A stretch of DNA of 64,000 nucleotides from Albimonas marina (GTDB taxonomy: Bacteria > Pseudomonadota > Alphaproteobacteria > Rhodobacterales > Rhodobacteraceae), in the NCBI RefSeq assembly GCF_029223255.1, contig NZ_JARHUC010000002.1:558001-622000 (forward strand). Reading direction: 5' to 3'. The notes beneath the pieces are model-generated. The model made no database searches, was not told where the DNA came from, and saw only the letters and a list, made by a program, of their open reading frames with translations. Position 1 is the stretch's first letter. Every line of letters starts with the position of its first letter. Of this stretch, positions 31,101 through 42,298 are shown piece by piece. The position numbers and the translations under genes were made by a program.

Positions 31101-33263
31101 TCACCCGCTTTGCCGGGCGTGGTTCGGGAAGACCCTGTCGAAGCCGTAGACCTCGACCATGCCGTCGAAGCTCCGGCACTCGGGGGTGCCGGCGTAGCCG
31201 TCGAGCCAGAAGCGATCGTCGGCGGAGATCTCGCCGCCGGCGGCGATCCGCCGGCGCAGGACGTGGGCGCGCAGGTAGCGCTCCTCGTCCGTTTCGGGGC
31301 GGGGCTTCGGCTTGTGCAGCGGAAAGGTCGCCACGAAGGCGGCCTGCCGAGCTTCTTCGGCGGGGTCCGGCTTCGCGGGCTCGAACGTCTGGCGGCGACC
31401 AGCGGCCTCGGCCGCAGCGTCCAGCGCCGGCGTGGCATGGGCCTCGCCTCGCTGCGGGAACGCGACCAGATCAGCCGAAGGTCGGCCGACGCCGCGCACC
31501 TCCAGCCGAGCCAGCTCCCGCAGCTCGCGCTTCTTGCCGCGGATCTCGGTCATGGCGCCCGCTTCGGCCGCCTTCTGCATCGCCTTGGCGCGCGCCAGCA
31601 CCTCGGCCGGATCGAGCCCGCGCAGTTCGGGGCAGATCGCCTCGCCCAGGAACGCGTCGCCCGAAGGCGTGAACAGCATCGCCCGGCCGAGGTCGTGGGG
31701 GTCCATGCGGACCAGCACGTCCATGCCGGGCTGAGCGCCCATCGGCAGGTACTGATGATGGTCGATCCGGACGCCCTGCTTGGTGACCCGCCGCAGGCCC
31801 CCGTTCGAGGCGAGCGGCGCGAGCAGCACGTCGAGCATCGCTTCGTCGGTCAGCCAGCGAACCGGCCCCGCGTAGGCCGCCGCCATCATGAAGGGCGTCC
31901 GCCGCCCGAGGCCCTCATGGGGCGTGTGGGCGAAGCGGTTCTCGGTCCAGTCGTCCGCCCAGGCCTGGAACTGCGCCAGGTCGAGCTGCACGTCGAAAAG
32001 CTCGACGTCGCTGGCGCCGAGACGGGCGTGGAATGCCTTGCGCCCCTCGATCCGCTTCCGGTCGGCGACCGAATGGCCGATGAAGCCCGGCATCACCTGC
32101 AGGTCGCGTTGGAACGTGCCGATCGTGCGCTCGACGATGCCCTTGGACTTCGGGTTGTAGGGCGGCGACAGCTCAACGTGGATGCCGGCGCTGTCGAACA
32201 GCTGACGGGTCTGGTGCGCGGTGAAGTCGGAGCCGTTGTCGGTGTGGATGCGCTCCGGCCACCCCCAGGTTTTGATGCACTTCCGCACGAGCAACCCGAC
32301 TGCGGACGCGCGGGGCGTCGGCGTGACCAGCACGATGGCCCGACGGGAGTAGACGTCGACCGCCATGTAGATCGAGGCGCGGCCGCTGGTGAGCATGATG
32401 TCCGCGGGCGAGGCGTCGATCTGCCAGACCTCGTTCAAGCGGTCTGCACGCTGCGTTCCGGTCGCGACGAACTCCACCTTCGAGCGGTAGCCGTCAGGGT
32501 CGGTCAGCCGCATCATCTCGTTGCGGTAGGTCTTCTTCCACTCGCCGACCGCGACCTGGAACATGCGCAGGCTGGGCAGCGGCACGCGCTTCAGTTCGCC
32601 CGTCGCCTCGTCCATCACCTCCAGCGAGGCGCCGTATTTCCGGGCGATCTGCTCGCGCAGCTGGCGGGCGTTGATCAACGGGTGCTTCGCCATCAGAGCC
32701 AGGGCAAGATTGCGGACCTCGCCGCCGTCGGCCCGGTCGAGAACGCCAGACCCTTTCGGTCGCCCCCGCCGCCCGGGCGCGGCGCCCTCAGCCGCGGCCT
32801 TGCGCCAGCGCGCCAGCGTGCGGGGCGAGAGGCTCTGCGCCTCGGCCCGCACCCAGCCGGGAAGGTCCACGCGGTCGCCGTTGAACAGCGCGCAGAATAT
32901 CGAATCTGAGGCCGTCTGGGACAGCAGCGTCTGCCAGCGGAACTTGTCGGCCAGCCGCACGATCACCCGCCGCGCGTCGAGCGCCGCGTCGACCGGGCCG
33001 TCGATCACCTCCAGGCGGACGTCCTCGTCGGTGACCTTCAGGTGATGGCTCAGCCAGGCGAGCTGCGCGGCAGGCGGCAGGAGGTCGACGTGGTACTCGA
33101 GTCCACCGCCCCCCTCCCGACCGCCGCGCAGGCGCGCCTGCGGGGTGGTCGCCCAGCCCTTGCGGTCGGCGAGGACGTTCACGCCCCGCTTGGTGGCAGG
33201 CATGCCAGGCATCAGCCCGGCCGCCGCCGCCTCCGCGATCTCCTGGGCCGAGAGCCACATCAT
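31101..33263 (-). CDS. MuA-like DDE transposase
   Basis: A 720-residue transposase. The N-terminus (WLSAQEIAEAAAAGLMPGMPATKRG) is the Mu-type winged-helix end-binding domain. The RNase H-like core has the triad Asp283 (WQIDASPAD), Asp342 (HTDNGSDF) and Glu378 (KSKGIVERTIG), a D-35-E spacing. The C-terminal Mu-type beta-barrel and a Lys/Arg/Glu-rich tail for MuB contact follow. It integrates and replicates the prophage by transposition. Start at 33263 overlaps the ParB-like stop. Confidence 0.95.
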   Translation of the reverse strand: MMWLSAQEIAEAAAAGLMPGMPATKRGVNVLADRKGWATTPQARLRGGREGGGGLEYHVDLLPPAAQLAWLSHHLKVTDEDVRLEVIDGPVDAALDARRVIVRLADKFRWQTLLSQTASDSIFCALFNGDRVDLPGWVRAEAQSLSPRTLARWRKAAAEGAAPGRRGRPKGSGVLDRADGGEVRNLALALMAKHPLINARQLREQIARKYGASLEVMDEATGELKRVPLPSLRMFQVAVGEWKKTYRNEMMRLTDPDGYRSKVEFVATGTQRADRLNEVWQIDASPADIMLTSGRASIYMAVDVYSRRAIVLVTPTPRASAVGLLVRKCIKTWGWPERIHTDNGSDFTAHQTRQLFDSAGIHVELSPPYNPKSKGIVERTIGTFQRDLQVMPGFIGHSVADRKRIEGRKAFHARLGASDVELFDVQLDLAQFQAWADDWTENRFAHTPHEGLGRRTPFMMAAAYAGPVRWLTDEAMLDVLLAPLASNGGLRRVTKQGVRIDHHQYLPMGAQPGMDVLVRMDPHDLGRAMLFTPSGDAFLGEAICPELRGLDPAEVLARAKAMQKAAEAGAMTEIRGKKRELRELARLEVRGVGRPSADLVAFPQRGEAHATPALDAAAEAAGRRQTFEPAKPDPAEEARQAAFVATFPLHKPKPRPETDEERYLRAHVLRRRIAAGGEISADDRFWLDGYAGTPECRSFDGMVEVYGFDRVFPNHARQSG

Positions 33264-35347: not shown

Positions 35348-36184
35348 ATGGATCCGATTCTGGACGTCATCGACGACGCGCTCAGAGAGAAGGGGCTGAC
35401 CGACGCGGCAGCCTCTCGCTTGGCTGTTGGGCATCCGTCTCTGATCAAGAACATGCGGCTGCCCCGCTCCGGCGAGAAGCGATACAACTTGCCGGCGCTG
35501 CAGAAGCTCGCCGCCGTTCTGGGGCTGGAATTCTACTTTGGACCGCCTCGGGCAGCATTGCGGGCCGATCTGAGTGCCCAAGGAGCGCAGCGCTCCAACC
35601 CCAGCGATCGCGATCTTGCGGCAGCGTTACAAAACCTGGATGCCCGCGAACTCCGTCGCCTCTTCGAGGCGGCTTACGGTCCCGACGTGGCGCCGCCAGG
35701 CGAAGCCCTTCGCCCCCTGAGCAAGGACGAGGACTTCGCGCTTGTCCCGCTACACGATGTGGAGTTGGCGGCCGGAACAGGCTTCACTAATGACAGCGAG
35801 GAGGCTGGCGCTCATCTGCTCTTTCGCCGCGACTGGTTGCAGAAGGTCGGCCTGGCGACAAAGGATGCTCGGCTCGTCCGCGTACGCGGCGAGAGCATGA
35901 TGCCGATGCTGTTCGATGCGGATGTTGTCCTACTGGACACTTCCAAGACCGAAGTTCCGGCCGGCCGAAAACGCGCTTCGGGCGCGCACACGAGATACCT
36001 AATTGCACTGGAGCAGGATGGCGAAGCGAGGGTGAAGTGGGCTGAACGGCCGAATGACGACACGCTTGTGCTCTCGTCCGAAAACAGCGTCGCCTACAGG
36101 CCGGAAGTCTACACTCGCTCGGAAATCGACGGAATGCGCGTTATCGGGCACGTTGTATGGTGGTGCCACACGGTTCGGGATTAG
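35348..36184 (+). CDS. Prophage repressor, S24 (LexA/CI-type) self-cleaving
   Basis: A 278-residue repressor. The N-terminal 65 residues are a helix-turn-helix (GLTDAAASRLAVGHPSLIKNM and NLPALQKLAAVLGLEF). The C-terminal half is a S24 peptidase domain with Ser183 in RGESMMPML and Lys230 in ARVKWAERP as the catalytic pair, and Ala142-Gly143 as a likely cleavage bond. So induction by RecA-stimulated cleavage (SOS) is expected, unlike the classical Mu repressor. It is divergent from the Ner-like gene over three dyads. The ribosome site is weak. Confidence 0.9.
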   Translation: MDPILDVIDDALREKGLTDAAASRLAVGHPSLIKNMRLPRSGEKRYNLPALQKLAAVLGLEFYFGPPRAALRADLSAQGAQRSNPSDRDLAAALQNLDARELRRLFEAAYGPDVAPPGEALRPLSKDEDFALVPLHDVELAAGTGFTNDSEEAGAHLLFRRDWLQKVGLATKDARLVRVRGESMMPMLFDADVVLLDTSKTEVPAGRKRASGAHTRYLIALEQDGEARVKWAERPNDDTLVLSSENSVAYRPEVYTRSEIDGMRVIGHVVWWCHTVRD

Positions 36185-36189
36185 CCACC

Positions 36190-36582
36190 CTACTGCGCTT
36201 CCTCCAGGAGATTTGATAGGAGCATTAGAAAGTCTATCCCCAACTTCTCGCAAGAATAGATTTTCGATCCGGCTGCACTCAGCTCGACAACCTCGGACTC
36301 TGAGATGACGTAGTAGGTACCCTTGCGCTCCACGACGACGCGGTCACCGAGCTGAACTACCTTCTTGTGAAGCGGCCACGCATCAAGCTCCAGAAGTCCA
36401 GCGCTGTCCTCGGCAAAGACCAGGTAGGCAGGCCGTAGCCCCTCGCAGTGGATGATCGTCTTGTCCGCGACTACATCGCCGAGCCGAAGCACCGTCTCCG
36501 GCTTCGTCGCCGCTGCCTCTTCGGCCCAGCAGGCGGGCACGCAAGCAAGCAAAGCGCAGGCGGCGAGCAGGGCGGATCTCAT
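36190..36582 (-). CDS. Secreted prophage accessory protein, unknown
   Basis: A 130-residue protein with a Sec signal peptide (residues 1-20, ALLAACALLACVPACWAEE) and a small mixed domain. The central part (VLRLGDVVADKTIIHCEGLRPAYLVF...LGDRVVVERKGTYYVI) is beta-rich with two cysteines (about 46 and 110) that could pair. It is convergent to the repressor, 5 nt away, and lies outside the conserved early genes, so it looks like a lysogenic accessory gene. Not recognised. Confidence 0.6.
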   Translation of the reverse strand: MRSALLAACALLACVPACWAEEAAATKPETVLRLGDVVADKTIIHCEGLRPAYLVFAEDSAGLLELDAWPLHKKVVQLGDRVVVERKGTYYVISESEVVELSAAGSKIYSCEKLGIDFLMLLSNLLEEAQ

Positions 36583-36652
36583 GGCGTTCGTCCTTCAATG
36601 AACTTCGCTTTCTCATGGCAAGGCGACCAGGAATGCGAGACCAAAGGTTCAA

Positions 36653-37207
36653 CTAGTCAGGTTGGTCGCCAGCATTTTCTGGCTCGCGAAGTACGCGTTC
36701 GCGGCATTCCACGACATCACGCTTTGGAGCCCAGTGGTTGCGGCCAAACGTATCGCAGAAGCCGAAATTGTCCAACTCATTCGTTTCAAACCAACTCTTC
36801 TCAAGAGGGAAGTATACAGCGAACTCCTCTCCTACCGCCAGCTTCTTTGGAAGCCCGCCACCGAAAGGACCATCAGTATCAAAGCCATGCGGGTATCGAT
36901 TGTATGGGTAGAGAATGCCATACTCTCGCGCATTTCGGAAAACACGGGGCCGCTTGCGCGCAATCGCATGCTTCAACGTGACCTCTGTCGGTCCATAATT
37001 TGTAGCACGGATCGTAACTGCGGGTGGAGTCTGTTCCCAGCCCGGACCAAAAGCCTGGACGACAGACATTCCCACTCGCAGCCTCGGCTTTGGGTAGATG
37101 AATTTTGACCAGATGTTCCAGAACAGACTCGCGAGCGCAATGGCGGTCGAGCCCAAGCTCACGATCAAGGCCCAATCTGCGGTCGTCATTCTTGGCCCAT
37201 CGCCCAT
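36653..37207 (-). CDS. Membrane-anchored prophage accessory protein, unknown
   Basis: A 184-residue protein; the start may be at 37207 or at the ATG at 37189. One N-terminal membrane helix (about 11-33, ALIVSLGSTAIALASLFWNIW) is followed by a cytoplasmic or periplasmic beta-rich domain (LRVGMSVVQAFGP...PPAVTIRATNYGPTEVTLKHAI) of a kind common in small hypothetical membrane proteins. Base composition is much less GC-rich than the chromosome. Possibly an exclusion or defence-related accessory gene; no motif proves it. Confidence 0.6.
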   Translation of the reverse strand: MGDGPRMTTADWALIVSLGSTAIALASLFWNIWSKFIYPKPRLRVGMSVVQAFGPGWEQTPPAVTIRATNYGPTEVTLKHAIARKRPRVFRNAREYGILYPYNRYPHGFDTDGPFGGGLPKKLAVGEEFAVYFPLEKSWFETNELDNFGFCDTFGRNHWAPKRDVVECRERVLREPENAGDQPD

Positions 37208-37355
37208 AGCGTTGACTGGAGCGGCACCGGATCACGCTAGTGATTATCCGAGCCTGCTCAACCTAGATCTAGATCGTAGCGACGTTGTTCGGGACTTATC
37301 TGGAACCGATGTTCTTGATATGTTCTGGACCGCCTTCTCCTGCTTAGGTTTCAAA

Positions 37356-38171
37356 ATGACCAGTGGCTTCGCCTCCCGTCACGTCGATCCCATCCGCCCC
37401 GTCGCCCCCTGGCTCGGCGGCAAACGCAACCTCGCCAGGCGCATCGTGGCGCGCCTCGCCGAGATCCCGCACGAGACCTATGCAGAGCCCTTTGTCGGGA
37501 TGGGCGGGGTGTTCCTGCGGCGCTCGGCGCGGCCCAGGGCCGAGGTGATCAACGACCGCGGCCGAGATGTCGCCAACCTATTCCGCATCCTCCAGCGCCA
37601 CTACCCGCAGTTCTTGGAGACGCTCCGCTTCCAGCTCACCACCCGCGCCGAGTTCGAGCGCCTGGTCGCCACCCGCGCCGACACGCTCACCGACCTCGAG
37701 CGCGCCGCCCGTTTCCTCTATCTCCAGCGCACCGCCTTCGGCGGCAAGATCGAGGGCCGCACCTTCGGCGTCTCCCGCGGGCGCCCCGGCACGTTCAACT
37801 TGACCACGCTGGAGCCGATGCTGGAGGACCTCCACACGCGCCTCGCCGGCGTGATCATTGAGTGCCTGGACTTCGGCGACTTCATCCGCCGCTACGACGC
37901 CCCCGCCACCCTCTTCTACCTCGACCCGCCCTACTGGGGCTGCGAGGACGACTACGGCCGCGCGCTCTTCGGCCCCGACGACTTCGCCCACCTCGCCGAG
38001 CAGCTCGCCGGCCTCCAGGGCCGGTTCCTGATGTCCATCAACGACGTCCCCGAAATCCGCGAACTGTTCGCCGCCTTCGATCTTCAAGCGGTCGAGACGA
38101 CCTACGGCATCAGTCGTCAGGCTGCCGCAAAGGCCGCCCCTCGAAGAGAGCTTCTCATTTCGGGGCGCTGA
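37356..38171 (+). CDS. D12-class N6-adenine DNA methyltransferase (Dam-like)
   Basis: A 271-residue methylase. It has the AdoMet-binding VAPWLGGKRNLARRI (16-30), EPFVGMGGVFL (44-54) and the catalytic DPPY (189-192) in FYLDPPYWGCEDDY. These mark the D12 class to which Dam belongs. There is no linked restriction gene, so it is an orphan enzyme, perhaps protecting prophage DNA or altering gene expression. It is rightward, unlike the flanking accessory genes, and lies between the repressor and the prophage end. Confidence 0.9.
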   Translation: MTSGFASRHVDPIRPVAPWLGGKRNLARRIVARLAEIPHETYAEPFVGMGGVFLRRSARPRAEVINDRGRDVANLFRILQRHYPQFLETLRFQLTTRAEFERLVATRADTLTDLERAARFLYLQRTAFGGKIEGRTFGVSRGRPGTFNLTTLEPMLEDLHTRLAGVIIECLDFGDFIRRYDAPATLFYLDPPYWGCEDDYGRALFGPDDFAHLAEQLAGLQGRFLMSINDVPEIRELFAAFDLQAVETTYGISRQAAAKAAPRRELLISGR

Positions 38172-38230
38172 GCGAATGCCTCCCCGATTTGGCGAGGCCG
38201 GGCGATCGGCTTGTTCGGATCTGTAGTGAA

Positions 38231-38830
38231 CTAACCCGATGCTTCGTTATCCACCGCCAATCGGATGCGCTGGATCTGTTCTTCGTCCAAACTATCGAAC
38301 GTGGCATGATGCCAACTTAGATCTCGGGCAACCTGGGCGGCCAGGTAAGCCCACCAGAGAGCATAGAGCGTCGAGCCCAACGTCAAAGCTAGCGCAATTC
38401 TATCAACCCAGATCGGGATCCAACCGACAAGCAATATTCCAAGGGAAGCTATTGCCATCAGTGCCGCCGCCGTCTGGACGCCATGAATAAACCCTAAAAT
38501 AAATAGATAAGTTGAGAGCACTCCAGAGTGTTGCAGAAAACTCGAAAAACTGGGCGCCGCCAAGCTGTCGTAGACTCGACCAATACCACTCCATGCGAGC
38601 GCCATCGTGAGCGCATTGAAGGCGAGCAGGCCAGAATAGAGGGTCACCGACACATCCCAGCGGCGCGGATAAAAGAATGATGCTTCGATGTTCTGAGATA
38701 CTAGAAAGCCCGCACCGCAGCAAATTGCGACCCGCCATGGCAAAACATGGATGGGTCCTCGGTCCCAATTGGCCCTGATGTCTTTGAGCCAAGCTTCACG
38801 CAGTGTCGGCGGCTGTTTCATCGCTCTCAA
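38231..38830 (-). CDS. RexB-like multi-spanning membrane protein (candidate exclusion system effector)
   Basis: A 199-residue inner-membrane protein with four to five hydrophobic segments: about 31-48, 58-82, 102-119, 121-141 and 143-167. A short cytoplasmic-type N-terminus and an acidic C-terminus flank them. Its start overlaps the end of the upstream RexA-like gene by 35 nt, so the two are one unit. In lambda, RexB is a four-TM ion channel that depolarises the cell when RexA detects a superinfecting phage. No direct sequence match to RexB can be claimed by eye; the pairing and topology are the evidence. Confidence 0.6.
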   Translation of the reverse strand: MRAMKQPPTLREAWLKDIRANWDRGPIHVLPWRVAICCGAGFLVSQNIEASFFYPRRWDVSVTLYSGLLAFNALTMALAWSGIGRVYDSLAAPSFSSFLQHSGVLSTYLFILGFIHGVQTAAALMAIASLGILLVGWIPIWVDRIALALTLGSTLYALWWAYLAAQVARDLSWHHATFDSLDEEQIQRIRLAVDNEASG

Positions 38831-39704
38831 ACAGCTCTCTTAGAGCCCTCACAATTTGCAGCTCTTCAGCCTCATCGCTGCCCATTTTCTCAACGGAGAC
38901 GAACAGAACTTGAGGCCGCTCTTCGGCGGCTTGGTCCTTCTCACGATCCCCTTGCAGCTTCTTCTTCTTGTAGACGACTTCAGCGCCTTCCGAAGTTGTT
39001 GCTTTCAGGCCGAGGTGACCGTACGATTTCTGAGTTAGACCGTCGACTTCCGACACGAGGCCGCCGGAGTCTGGGACCATGTGCCCACCATCAGCGGGGC
39101 GGGCTTTCCCCGTGAACTTATCGACTTTCGCGATCGAGAGCAACTTGTGAAGTTCATCTCCTGGCACGCTCGGGTGCGGGTTGAATGGCCGAACTTCGAA
39201 AGTTAGCTCAATCAAGCGTAGTTTCTTAAGCGCCTTCGATACATCATTCCTATTTGCAGTTGCGATGTAATCGAACGCAATCTCGCCGTGGTGCTCAAAT
39301 ATTGCCCGAACCCGCCCAGCGCCACCCGTCGCACTGAGGTCATCCCCCGAGCCATCCCGGAATGCGCAGACGCCGTAGGCGGGCACGAAAACCGCACGCG
39401 TGTAGCGCATATCGTTGGCATCACGGTATACGGGCGAGATCTTCTCGGTGCGTGGGTTGAGCTGCCGCTCCAGGCGCTCCGTAATCTGGTAGCCCACGCC
39501 AAAGGAAAAGTAGTCCAGCCCGGAGAGCTTACTATCAGAGATGTCGAACACAAAATGTTTCTCGTCATTTTTCTCTGGGTCGCGCACCCTGTACGGGGCT
39601 TTTTTTCCTTTTATGTTATCGAATTCTGCGAGGTGGTGGCTATGGTCAATTTCTTCGCCCTCACTGTTACTCATGGTGTAACGAAAGATTGCAAAATTAG
39701 GCAT
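38796..39704 (-). CDS. RexA/DUF4747-like cytoplasmic protein (candidate exclusion system sensor)
   Basis: A 302-residue soluble protein with no signal or membrane segment. It has an outline shared by lambda RexA and DUF4747 proteins: an N-terminal strand-rich part, a TRAVFVPAYGVCAF core strand pair (about residue 103), then ANRNDVSKALKKLRLIELTF-EVRPFNPHP and a GGLVSEVDGLTQKSYGHLGLKA segment. The C-terminal 80 residues are acidic and helical. It leads the pair with the membrane protein downstream. Lower GC suggests recent acquisition. Assignment to this superfamily is by pattern only. Confidence 0.6.
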   Translation of the reverse strand: MPNFAIFRYTMSNSEGEEIDHSHHLAEFDNIKGKKAPYRVRDPEKNDEKHFVFDISDSKLSGLDYFSFGVGYQITERLERQLNPRTEKISPVYRDANDMRYTRAVFVPAYGVCAFRDGSGDDLSATGGAGRVRAIFEHHGEIAFDYIATANRNDVSKALKKLRLIELTFEVRPFNPHPSVPGDELHKLLSIAKVDKFTGKARPADGGHMVPDSGGLVSEVDGLTQKSYGHLGLKATTSEGAEVVYKKKKLQGDREKDQAAEERPQVLFVSVEKMGSDEAEELQIVRALRELFESDETAADTA

Positions 39705-40291
39705 CGCCGCCCCACAGATATCCTACCCTTTATCGTGAAAATGTCGCCAGAAACGAGATTCGTCAAACTTGGTCGCACTGGACCAGTTCATCGTCTCAGC
39801 GCGTCGCTGGCGTTGTCAGAGTGTTCCCGGTGTGAAGCCAGAGAAGGGGCCGGAGCCGCGGCCAGCCCATGACGCGAGCTGCTGATTTCGCGCGGCGCTT
39901 GAAAGCCCGGTTCATCGCCCTTTCCGGACGGCTGCGGGGCGCTCCCGCGAGTTCCCACCTTGCAGCCCCGCCCAAAGGGGCCATGTTGGCGTTTCCCAAA
40001 TGATTTCCGCCGGTTAGTCGAGGCGGGAAGAATCCGACGCCCCGGCGATTCCGTTCCCACCTTCCGAGGCCCTCGGACTGTTTTCATTGCGCTTTTTCGG
40101 GCAACCTCTGGCGGCCGAAGCGCTCTCGGCGAAGATTTCTTTGCGCAAACCTCCGGAGCGCCTGGGCATCACCCTGTCAGGCTGCTCGCGGTAAGGCGTT
40201 GCTGTGCAACGGTTCTCGCCAGAATTCGTCTCTCGACGGCTGTTCTCGAAAATAGGCCCTCACTGCCACCATTTCCTGCGCCTTACAGCGA

Positions 40292-40309
40292 CCCCGCCTC
40301 TTGGCGGGG
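40292..40309. terminator. Hairpin terminator-like element
   Basis: CCCCGCC-tctt-GGCGGGG followed by CTTGTCCTT. It is a compact stem with a weak T-rich tail on the plus strand. The gene it served is not visible; it may belong to a chromosomal unit cut off by the prophage. Confidence 0.5.
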
Positions 40310-40457
40310 CTTGTCCTTGACCCCGGCGGGCGAGTCGCTCAGGCATCTTCAGCGAGAGACGGATCAGAAGGACAGGCGCGGCCCCTGTTCTTTGGTGAGT
40401 CAGGAGCCCGCCGGAGGCTCCCGCCCCCTGCCCTTCCGGGCGCGCCTCCCGCAGGGG

Positions 40458-40481
40458 GCCCAAGCCCGCCCGCAGGGCGCC
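40458..40481 (+). repeat. Chromosomal 24-bp intergenic repeat, copy 1
   Basis: Identical over 24 bp to the minus strand of 61208-61231 (core CCCAAGCCCGCCCGCAGGG). Both copies are in gene-free stretches, close to convergent or divergent gene ends. It may be a REP-like or terminator-associated repeat of the host. Confidence 0.55.
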
Positions 40482-40588
40482 CGTAGACCGCCCCTCCCCC
40501 GCTCCCCGCCATTGAGCCGGGCCGAGCCCCGGTCTAGGAAGGCCCCACGCTTTCCGCCCCCCTTCGTCCGCCGCGCCCCGGAGTCCGC

Positions 40589-42298
40589 ATGAGCCAGTCC
40601 AGCCTCGAGGCCGCTTCGGTTCCCGTCGCGCGGCGGCTGCGCTTCGGCTCGCGGCGCGGGCCGCGGGCGGCCTCGGCGCGGGGGCTGACCTGGCCCGCGT
40701 GGCTGCTGGCCGCGCTCTGCGCGCTGCCGGCGCTCTCGGTGGCGGTCACGGCGGTGCTGGGCGACTGGTCGCTGTGGTCGCTGCTGATGTCGACGGTGCT
40801 GCCGCGCTACGCCTTCACCACGCTGCAGCTCGCGCTGCTGGTGGCGGCCGGGTCGCTGCTGCTGGGGGTGGGCTCGGCGGCGCTGGTCACCGCCTGCCGC
40901 TTTCCGGGGCGGCGCTTCTTCGAGGTGGCGCTGATCGCGCCGCTGGCCTTCCCCGCCTACGTGCTCGCCTACGCCTACACCTACATGCTCGACCATCCCG
41001 GCCCGGTGCAGGCGGCGCTGCGGGCGGCGATGGGCTACGGGCCGCGCGACTACTGGTTCCCCGAGATCCGCTCGCTCGGCGGCGCGGCGCTGATGCTGTC
41101 GCTGGTGCTTTACCCTTACGTCTACCTGCTGACGCGGGCGGCCCTGCTGCACCAGTCGGTGACCGCGGCGCAGGTGGCGCGCACGCTGGGGCTCGGCCCC
41201 TGGGGGGTTCTGTTCCGGGTGACCCTGCCGATGGCGCGGCCGGCCATCGTGGGGGGCCTCGCGCTCGCGATGATGGAGACGATCGCGGATTTCGGCGCGG
41301 TCTCCCACTTCGGGGTGCAGACCTTCGCCACCGGGGTCTACCGGGCCTGGTTCTCGATGGGCGACCGGGTGGCGGCGGCGCAGCTGTCGCTGTGCCTGCT
41401 GACGCTCGCCGTGGCGCTGGTGGCGCTCGAGCGCGCCCAGCGCGGCCGCGCGCGCCGTCACCAGGCCGGGCGGCGCTACGAGCGGCTGACCGAGGTCGAG
41501 CTTCCCGGCTGGCAGGGCCGCGCCGCGGCGATCGCCTGCGGGATCCCCGTGGCCTTCGGCTTCGCGATCCCGCTCGGCATGCTGGGGTACATGGCCTGGA
41601 CCTCCTGGTCGGGCCTGGGCGTCGAGCGCTACTGGGGCTTCGCCTGGAACACGCTGACGCTGGCGGGGTCTGCGGCGGCGCTGGTGATGGGGGCGGCGCT
41701 GCTGATCGGCTACGCGGTGCGCCTCGCGCCCGGGCCGGGGGCGAAGGCGGCGCAGCTCGCCTCCTCGGTCGGCTACGCGGCCCCGGGCTCGGTGATCGCG
41801 GTGGGGCTGCTGACGCCGCTCGCCTTCACCGACAACGCCATCGACGGCTTCGCGCGGGAGTGGCTGGGCGTCTCCACCGGCCTGATCCTGACCGGGACCG
41901 TGGGGGGCATCCTGCTCGCCTATCTCTCGCGCTTCATGGCCGCGGGGCTGAACGCCGTCTCGGCGGGGTTCGAGGGGCTGGGCCCGAATCTCGACGCCTC
42001 CGCGAGGGTGCTGGGCTGCAACGTCTGGGGCGTGGTGGGGCGCGTGCATGCGCCGCTGCTGCGCGGCTCCCTGCTGACCGGCGCGCTGATCGTCTTCGTC
42101 GACGTCACCAAGGAGCTGCCGGCCACGCTGATGCTGCGCCCGTTCGACTTCGACACGCTCGCCGTGCAGGCCTACCGCCTCGCCTCGGACGAGCGGCTGG
42201 CCGAGGCCGCGGCCCCCTCGCTCGCCATCGCGGCGGTGGGCATGGCCCCGGTGCTGCTGCTCGCCCGCTCGATCAGGAAGAGCCGGCCGGGGAGCTGA
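40589..42298 (+). CDS. fbpB: Fe(III) ABC transporter permease (FbpB-type)
   Basis: A 569-residue fused permease with two sets of six or so membrane helices, as in FbpB/AfuB/SfuB. Each half carries a binding-protein-dependent transport (EAA) loop: AARTLGLGPWGVLFRVTLPMARPAI-like near residue 195-220 and ARVLGCNVWGVVGRVHAPLLRGSL near 470. KELPATLMLRPFDFDTLAVQAYR at the end is typical of iron permeases. It takes Fe3+ from the periplasmic FbpA encoded on the other strand at 43212-44231. The ATPase FbpC is not in the window. GGAG lies 6 nt before the ATG. The 3' end overlaps the convergent protease gene. Confidence 0.9.
   Translation: MSQSSLEAASVPVARRLRFGSRRGPRAASARGLTWPAWLLAALCALPALSVAVTAVLGDWSLWSLLMSTVLPRYAFTTLQLALLVAAGSLLLGVGSAALVTACRFPGRRFFEVALIAPLAFPAYVLAYAYTYMLDHPGPVQAALRAAMGYGPRDYWFPEIRSLGGAALMLSLVLYPYVYLLTRAALLHQSVTAAQVARTLGLGPWGVLFRVTLPMARPAIVGGLALAMMETIADFGAVSHFGVQTFATGVYRAWFSMGDRVAAAQLSLCLLTLAVALVALERAQRGRARRHQAGRRYERLTEVELPGWQGRAAAIACGIPVAFGFAIPLGMLGYMAWTSWSGLGVERYWGFAWNTLTLAGSAAALVMGAALLIGYAVRLAPGPGAKAAQLASSVGYAAPGSVIAVGLLTPLAFTDNAIDGFAREWLGVSTGLILTGTVGGILLAYLSRFMAAGLNAVSAGFEGLGPNLDASARVLGCNVWGVVGRVHAPLLRGSLLTGALIVFVDVTKELPATLMLRPFDFDTLAVQAYRLASDERLAEAAAPSLAIAAVGMAPVLLLARSIRKSRPGS

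What the first reader, a model, noticed from the sequence alone, without database searches (positions are those of the whole stretch)
38231..39704. RexAB-like two-gene exclusion module at the repressor end of the prophage
A soluble 302-residue protein with the outline of RexA/DUF4747 overlaps by 35 nt a 199-residue protein with four or five membrane helices. Lambda carries rexA-rexB beside its repressor for superinfection exclusion. Here the pair lies in the lysogenic accessory block near the repressor, is less GC-rich than its surroundings, and is transcribed alone. RexAB-like systems in transposable phages of alphaproteobacteria would be new to me.
Basis: inference. Interest (0 to 1): 0.85.

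Follow-up and report, generated by a model that had tools for sequence, protein, structure and literature searches.

The report
Orphan RexAB-like gene pair in prophage
Near one end of a dormant jumping virus in a bacterial chromosome lie two overlapping genes, one for a soluble protein and one for a membrane protein, arranged like known phage-exclusion pairs, but their sequences match nothing known, so the likeness is plausible and unproven.

Summary
The genes are real: a 302-residue soluble protein (A, 38796-39704, minus) overlaps by 35 nt a 199-residue protein (B, 38231-38830, minus) with two to five hydrophobic segments by threshold. They are AT-richer (54% GC) than the prophage (71%) and lie between a Dam-type methyltransferase gene and the probable end of a ~40-kb transposable prophage related to phages RC1 and RS1. 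The RexA/DUF4747 label is not confirmed: A and B reach no Pfam, PHROG, NCBIfam or PADLOC model's cut-off, A lacks the DUF4747 motif, no credible relative turned up in over 700 genomes, INPHARED or PLSDB, and two AlphaFold runs on A failed (pLDDT 34). This does not exclude RexA: Toast gp42, a published RexA-like protein, is also missed by Pfam, PADLOC and the RexA structure's sequence, and accepted RexA-like families reach at most 0.6% hhalign probability with each other here. Support comes from anatomy (16 of 17 DUF4747 genes examined are followed directly by a TM gene) and place (phage contigs sharing the methyltransferase gene carry varied cargo 3' of it, once a pair that looks RexAB-like). 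Most likely an exclusion module, soluble sensor plus membrane effector, working like RexAB; homology is open.

The parts
38796..39704 (-). gene A: 302-aa soluble protein without family match; candidate sensor (RexA-like by anatomy only)
   Evidence: ORF longer than in 1000 of 1000 shuffles; no library match above cut-off; no TM segment
38231..38830 (-). gene B: 199-aa membrane protein, candidate membrane effector; hydrophobic segments start at about residues 27, 60, 104, 124 and 145 (threshold 1.4); alternative ATG start at 38821
   Evidence: 35-nt overlap with A
38796..38830 (-). 35-nt overlap of A and B (26 nt from the ATG), suggesting translational coupling (inference)
   Evidence: sequence
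37098..38171 (+). Dam-type (MethyltransfD12) adenine methyltransferase gene, convergent with B; true start probably internal
   Evidence: PF02086 E 1.6e-23, residues 105-337; the ORFs in L089 and L091 start near the domain
35510..36184 (+). phage repressor with S24 peptidase domain (start codon uncertain)
   Evidence: PF00717 E 5.7e-12; phrog_4 repressor E 8.2e-22
31101..33263 (-). Mu-type transposase
   Evidence: phrog_310 E 9.6e-96; relatives in phages RC1 and RS1
40261..40379 (.). probable end of the prophage: imperfect inverted repeat of the opposite end (L180 from 11917, which begins just outside the window)
   Evidence: no clean target-site duplication established

Best explanation
The pair is a lysogenic-conversion (anti-phage) module that works in the manner of RexAB. 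Protein A is a cytoplasmic protein that senses an infection (phage DNA, a replication intermediate or a phage protein) and activates protein B, a multi-pass inner-membrane protein that depolarises or permeabilises the membrane and stops the infection. Shown here: two overlapping genes, A's length beyond chance; a soluble and a hydrophobic product; AT-rich cargo between a methyltransferase gene and the probable end of a transposable prophage; other cargo 3' of that gene in phage contigs that share it. Inferred: expression in the lysogen, sensing, A-B interaction, membrane damage, exclusion of other phages. Whether A is a homologue of RexA is left open.
For: Gene order and soluble/membrane split match known pairs: lambda rexA-rexB, Butters 30/31, Toast 42/41, and 16 of 17 DUF4747 genes followed directly by a gene with at least two predicted TM segments (L081 has 526 nt left before the contig end and no closed ORF; 15 distinct DUF4747 and 14 distinct partners). 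Pairs of this anatomy are reported as exclusion systems in PMC12894663, PMC6426606 and PMC6426596. Phage contigs that share the methyltransferase gene carry varied cargo 3' of it: DUF5131 plus a second gene in L109, SRAP in L102, a KAP NTPase and a reverse transcriptase gene in the related prophage L091, there on the repressor side. In L105 a 349-aa soluble gene overlaps a 194-aa TM gene by 4 nt; weak relatives of it (E 0.03 and 0.06) lie directly after CI and before a gene annotated 'transmembrane protein' in phage Perceval, and one small gene after a repressor and before a gene with predicted TM segments in phage phi1_092021. Weak signals only: A against the DUF4747 profile scores 21.3, reached by 5 of 239 background proteins and 1 of 30 shuffles; B against one DUF4747 partner, 28% over 82 aa, E 0.014 for that single comparison; hydropathy likeness of B to the partners 0.465, reached by 2 of 30 other membrane ORFs.
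Against: No profile hit above cut-off for A or B; A against the DUF4747 profile -1.8 bits and B against the partner profile -1.4 bits. hhalign of A with Butters/Toast, lambda RexA and L105A is matched or beaten by 82, 78 and 186 of 239 background proteins, and with the L105-type profile has probability 0.07%. B is not set apart from background with any of four partner sets (3, 3, 18 and 19 of 22 membrane ORFs score as high). Two AlphaFold runs on A gave pLDDT 33.9 and 33.6, the second although DUF4747 rows were supplied. The pair is not beside or co-directional with the repressor; no promoter was found. The contigs were fetched by the methyltransferase alone and were not shown to be transposable phages. 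No function is tested.
Confidence: 0.45

Rival explanations
1. A and B form another kind of two-gene defence system with a membrane part (for example Kiwa-like, or an as yet undescribed pair), in which A acts on DNA or nucleotides itself and B anchors, scaffolds or restrains it.
For: Cargo 3' of the methyltransferase gene in other contigs includes genes of types often linked to defence (the link is recalled). Soluble plus multi-TM pairs are found in several systems (recalled). In the Butters pair the soluble protein is the effector (passages of PMC7542560; Discussion of PMC12894663).
Against: No PADLOC model matches A or B at E up to 10; the gene order of Kiwa, membrane gene first, is reversed here (recalled).
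Confidence: 0.28
2. The pair is lysogenic-conversion cargo without anti-phage role, such as a toxin-antitoxin, transport or surface-modifying pair.
For: Prophage cargo is diverse; no homologues exist to argue for defence; B could be any small polytopic membrane protein.
Against: The anatomy is shared with reported exclusion pairs, and some of the cargo in comparable places is of types linked to defence.
Confidence: 0.18
3. The ORFs are decayed or non-functional remnants.
For: GC is lower than in the rest of the phage, codon periodicity is weak in B, 92 of 1000 shuffles hold an ORF as long as B, and no relatives were found that would show selection.
Against: Two long ORFs in overlapping register with a soluble and a hydrophobic product; A's length is not reached in 1000 shuffles.
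Confidence: 0.09

Closest known systems
Phage lambda RexAB (PF15969/PF15968; RexA structure 8TWQ)
   Same: Soluble protein of similar size (279 against 302 aa) first, small multi-TM protein second, adjacent, carried by a temperate phage
   Different: No sequence or profile match; not in the repressor operon; B is longer (199 against 144 aa); fold of A unknown
Actinophage pairs Sbash 30/31, CarolAnn 44/43, Butters 30/31, Toast 42/41
   Same: Soluble plus TM pair; in Sbash (paper) and Butters the pair is away from the repressor
   Different: No significant pairwise match of A to Toast gp42 or Butters gp30; in Toast and CarolAnn the pair adjoins the repressor; Sbash and CarolAnn proteins were not fetched
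DUF4747 (PF15931) plus TM partner
   Same: Two-gene layout with overlap or short gap; partners of 185-266 aa; found in alphaproteobacteria
   Different: A fails the PF15931 model and lacks the LNIxLHPH stretch; B fails the partner profile
Pseudomonas putida RexABpp (PP_5643/PP_5644)
   Same: Prophage-borne soluble plus four-TM pair with reported anti-phage effect
   Different: Linked to RexA by HHpred and a Dali match; A has no such link; the sequence was not at hand for comparison
L105 pair (IMG/VR contig)
   Same: Directly 3' of a methyltransferase gene 77% identical to the window's; soluble 349 aa overlapping a TM protein of 194 aa
   Different: No detectable similarity of A to L105A or B to L105B; same strand as the methyltransferase gene, not convergent; its phage type was not determined

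Membership tests
RexA (lambda type) | Match to PF15969 / PADLOC RexA model | tested here: not met
   0 such hits for A; lambda RexA itself scores 364 bits in PADLOC and 327 in Pfam
RexA (lambda type) | RdgC-like split globular plus dimerisation fold | tested here: inconclusive
   AlphaFold pLDDT 33.9 alone and 33.6 with DUF4747 rows; no fold search run on such models
RexA (lambda type) | Dimer that binds DNA without sequence preference | not testable with these tools
   needs purified protein
RexA (lambda type) | TM partner gene directly downstream | tested here: met
   B overlaps A by 35 nt and has two to five hydrophobic segments by threshold
RexA (lambda type) | Same operon as the repressor (true of lambda and CarolAnn, not of Sbash) | tested here: not met
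   repressor on the opposite strand about 2 kb away
RexB | Match to PF15968 | tested here: not met
   0 Pfam hits for B; lambda RexB scores 305 bits
RexB | Four TM helices, ion-channel activity | tested here: inconclusive
   two to five segments by threshold; channel activity not testable
DUF4747 | Match to PF15931 | tested here: not met
   no hit; own 15-sequence profile -1.8 bits
DUF4747 | N-terminal LNIxLHPH stretch seen in the family alignment | tested here: not met
   absent from A
Kiwa | PADLOC Kiwa models (that the library holds them is recalled) | tested here: not met
   0 PADLOC hits for A and B at E up to 10
Anti-phage system (function) | Reduces plating of some phage | not testable with these tools
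   needs plaque assays

The most novel reading that the evidence does not exclude
A and B are a further lineage of RexAB-type exclusion module, diverged beyond sequence recognition, and the place 3' of the Dam-type methyltransferase gene in these phages is an exchangeable defence locus that has taken in RexAB-type pairs at least twice (here and in L105).
Probability: 0.3. Interest if true: 0.6.

Novelty: new variant of a known kind. Interest (0 to 1): 0.4.

Why it matters
[quoted passage not shown] If this orphan pair excludes phages it would add an independent lineage in a transposable phage, and it would mark a place in phage genomes where more such systems can be found by position where sequence search fails.

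Tried and rejected
Homologue hunts for A: Pfam, PHROGs, NCBIfam, PADLOC, PDB sequences; peptide scans of IMG/VR and GTDB, which reach close relatives only; tblastn of INPHARED (one match at E 0.6) and PLSDB (none); the genome search over 385 class, 390 order, 3 genus and 190 phylum genomes, some of them counted more than once; one degenerate DNA pattern in IMG/VR (none). At E up to 1 the order search gave 47 of 390 genomes with a match, the own genome included, the best other at E 0.003; I judged these chance from their scores and short extent and did not examine each. L088 (E 0.004) falls in a frame that overlaps longer ORFs. For B: family search, 53 of 295 genomes at E up to 1, own included, best other E 0.002, also judged chance; INPHARED, IMG/VR and PLSDB gave none. 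Searches of A and B against 2998 ORFs of related loci gave best E 2.4 and 3.4.

Profile comparison with controls was rejected as a decisive test, because accepted relatives hardly see each other: hhalign probability 0.6% for RexA against Butters/Toast, 0.3% for RexA against DUF4747, 0.6% for Butters/Toast against DUF4747. Toast gp42 does not find 8TWQ by sequence, nor does a three-sequence DUF4747 profile or the Perceval protein. Lambda RexA does.

Structure: A alone and A with 11 DUF4747 rows gave unusable models, so no fold search was run. The second run was a forced alignment (11-18% identity) and could not have been independent evidence.

A by-eye likeness of A to Toast gp42 and lambda RexA (order of strands and helices, 'RAVFVP' beside 'YRAVLMVP') was noted, but blastp gives nothing for Toast, so it is not counted as evidence.

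The argument from place is weaker than I first had it, so I lowered the main explanation from 0.5 to 0.45 and the novel case from 0.35 to 0.3.

Full report
What is there. ORF A (38796-39704, minus, ATG, 302 aa) and ORF B (38231-38830, minus, TTG or an ATG three codons on, 199 aa) overlap by 35 nt. In 1000 dinucleotide shuffles of the 2129-nt region the longest ORF reached at most 296 aa (mean 151); 0 of 1000 reached 302, and 92 of 1000 reached 199. A has low GC at codon position 2 and no hydrophobic segment; B has two segments at a threshold of 1.6 and five at 1.4. GC is 54% against 71% in window 1-38171 and 74% in 40590-64000. No sigma-70-type promoter was found in 37900-40600 (0 found, 0.7 expected).

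Where it lies. The window carries a Mu-type prophage: transposase, ParB-like protein, terminase subunits, portal and major head protein by PHROGs. The transposase has relatives in phages RC1 and RS1 (51.6% identity over half its length). An imperfect inverted repeat pairs window 40379-40261 with a stretch that begins just before the window's first base (L180 from 11917), which would give a prophage of about 40.5 kb; I established no clean target-site duplication. A and B lie between a Dam-type methyltransferase gene (PF02086), with which they are convergent, and this end. The repressor (S24 domain) is about 2 kb away on the other strand. So the pair is near but not in the repressor operon.

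What comparable phages hold there. Three related transposable phages were seen through their transposase. In L089 the methyltransferase gene is the outermost gene and the contig ends 617 nt beyond its stop codon. In L091 a KAP NTPase and a reverse transcriptase gene follow the methyltransferase gene 3', on the repressor side. In L090 no methyltransferase gene was seen, and a gene that looks like DUF5131 (not tested) and a second gene without Pfam match lie outermost. A wider set came by the methyltransferase alone: of 134 confirmed IMG/VR matches the tool kept 80, whose phage type I did not determine. In 13 of 80 the gene ends within 60 nt of the contig end. Genes 3' of it were listed for 57 of 80 (23 had under 500 nt; in tails over 3500 nt only genes starting in the first 3500 were listed). 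Pfam, run on eight proteins from L090, L091, L102, L105 and L109, named above cut-off a KAP NTPase, a reverse transcriptase, a DUF5131 (L109) and an SRAP (L102) protein; the other four (both L105 proteins, the second genes of L109 and L090) had none. By their first residues L112, L113 (same cargo), L116 and L143 also look like DUF5131 carriers and L174 like an SRAP carrier, which I did not test.

The L105 pair. Of the 57 loci listed, one (L105) has a soluble gene (349 aa) overlapping by 4 nt a gene for a 194-aa TM protein right after the methyltransferase gene (77% identical to the window's). tblastn of the soluble protein in INPHARED gave nine records at E 0.03-0.8, at most half of the query covered. 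In Perceval (E 0.03) the match lies directly after CI and before a gene annotated as a transmembrane protein. In phi1_092021 (E 0.06, annotated 'DefenseFinder protein') it lies one small gene after a repressor and before a gene with a weak '4TM effector' PADLOC match (E 0.0014). In SfIV (E 0.8) it lies beside lysis genes. L105 is therefore a possible RexAB-like pair. It shows no similarity to A or B.

Tests of the RexA/DUF4747 claim. In four libraries at E up to 10, A and B gave two entries, both far below cut-off: A to ANGEL2_N (E 0.029) and B to a SecE model (E 4.1). A against a 15-sequence DUF4747 profile scores -1.8 bits; B against the 14-sequence partner profile -1.4 bits. The LNIxLHPH stretch of DUF4747 is absent. 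In hhalign, A against DUF4747 scored 21.3, which 5 of 239 background proteins and 1 of 30 shuffles reached; against Butters/Toast, lambda RexA and L105A 82, 78 and 186 of 239 scored as high; B against the DUF4747 partners, Butters/Toast, lambda RexB and L105B partners was reached by 3, 3, 18 and 19 of 22 membrane ORFs. The controls show why this does not settle the matter: RexA against Butters/Toast has probability 0.6%, RexA against DUF4747 0.3%; Toast gp42 has no PADLOC match and only a 12-bit Pfam entry; and neither it nor a three-sequence DUF4747 profile finds 8TWQ by sequence. AlphaFold failed on A, alone (pLDDT 33.9, pTM 0.20) and with 11 DUF4747 rows (33.6, 0.27).

Anatomy of the known pairs. 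17 DUF4747 loci were examined; 16 have a gene with at least two predicted TM segments directly downstream; the 17th (L081) has 526 nt before the contig end and no closed ORF. They include Niveispirillum, Mesorhizobium, Agrobacterium and Sphingomonas, so DUF4747 pairs of this layout are present in alphaproteobacteria. B's hydropathy profile is like theirs to a moderate degree: 0.465, reached by 2 of 30 background membrane ORFs; family members 0.68-0.84, lambda RexB 0.57, Butters 0.57, Toast 0.74, but the L105-type partners only 0.16-0.33 (one too short to score), reversed B 0.27.

Literature. Abstract, sections 7, 8 and 12 and passages of PMC12894663 describe a P. putida prophage pair in which both genes are needed for defence and overexpression of the soluble protein leads to membrane damage through the membrane protein; it counts five RexAB-like systems. 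[quoted passage not shown] Passages of PMC6426596, PMC6426606 and PMC7542560 describe the Sbash, CarolAnn and Butters pairs; for CarolAnn, Sbash and Butters the DUF4747 link is called a weak HHpred match. Passages of PMC13373217 count 17 'DUF4747/CarolAnn' cases behind CapKS. Passages of PMC9936078 and PMC4378225 report exclusion genes and accessory regions in Pseudomonas transposable phages, none of them a RexAB pair in what I saw. Searches for RexAB with Alphaproteobacteria (one paper, on blue light by its listing) and for Mu-like with RexA and prophage (seven papers, two read in passages, five seen as listings) showed no RexAB-like pair in a transposable phage of alphaproteobacteria.

Verdict. 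The genes are real and lie as cargo at the end of a transposable prophage. The most likely role is exclusion in the manner of RexAB (0.45). Membership of the RexA or DUF4747 family is not shown: library tests were not met, and the fold test failed for want of homologues.

Noticed in passing
L105:6892-8522: A possible RexAB-like soluble/TM pair directly 3' of the same kind of methyltransferase gene in an IMG/VR contig, with weak relatives near repressor genes in phages Perceval and phi1_092021.
   Followed up: partly
L091:1366-5054: A KAP NTPase gene and a reverse transcriptase gene between the methyltransferase gene and the repressor of a related prophage.
   Followed up: partly
L109:4347-6330; also L112, L113, L116, L143, L090: A DUF5131 gene as cargo, followed by a second gene where the contig goes on; only L109 was tested by Pfam for DUF5131.
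   Followed up: partly
L061, L070, L071, L074-L087: 16 of 17 DUF4747 genes are followed at once by a TM protein; by eye a [LIV]PxLLGFxL stretch is conserved. The partner of L061 has no Pfam match at E up to 1; others were not scanned.
   Followed up: yes
window 36190-37207 (-): A 130-aa ORF with an apparent signal peptide (a similar-looking 140-aa ORF lies in L089) and a 184-aa ORF with a hydrophobic N-terminal stretch, between repressor and methyltransferase gene; the second has no family match above cut-off.
   Followed up: no
window 40261-40379 and L180 from 11917: Imperfect inverted repeat that probably marks the two ends of the prophage.
   Followed up: partly
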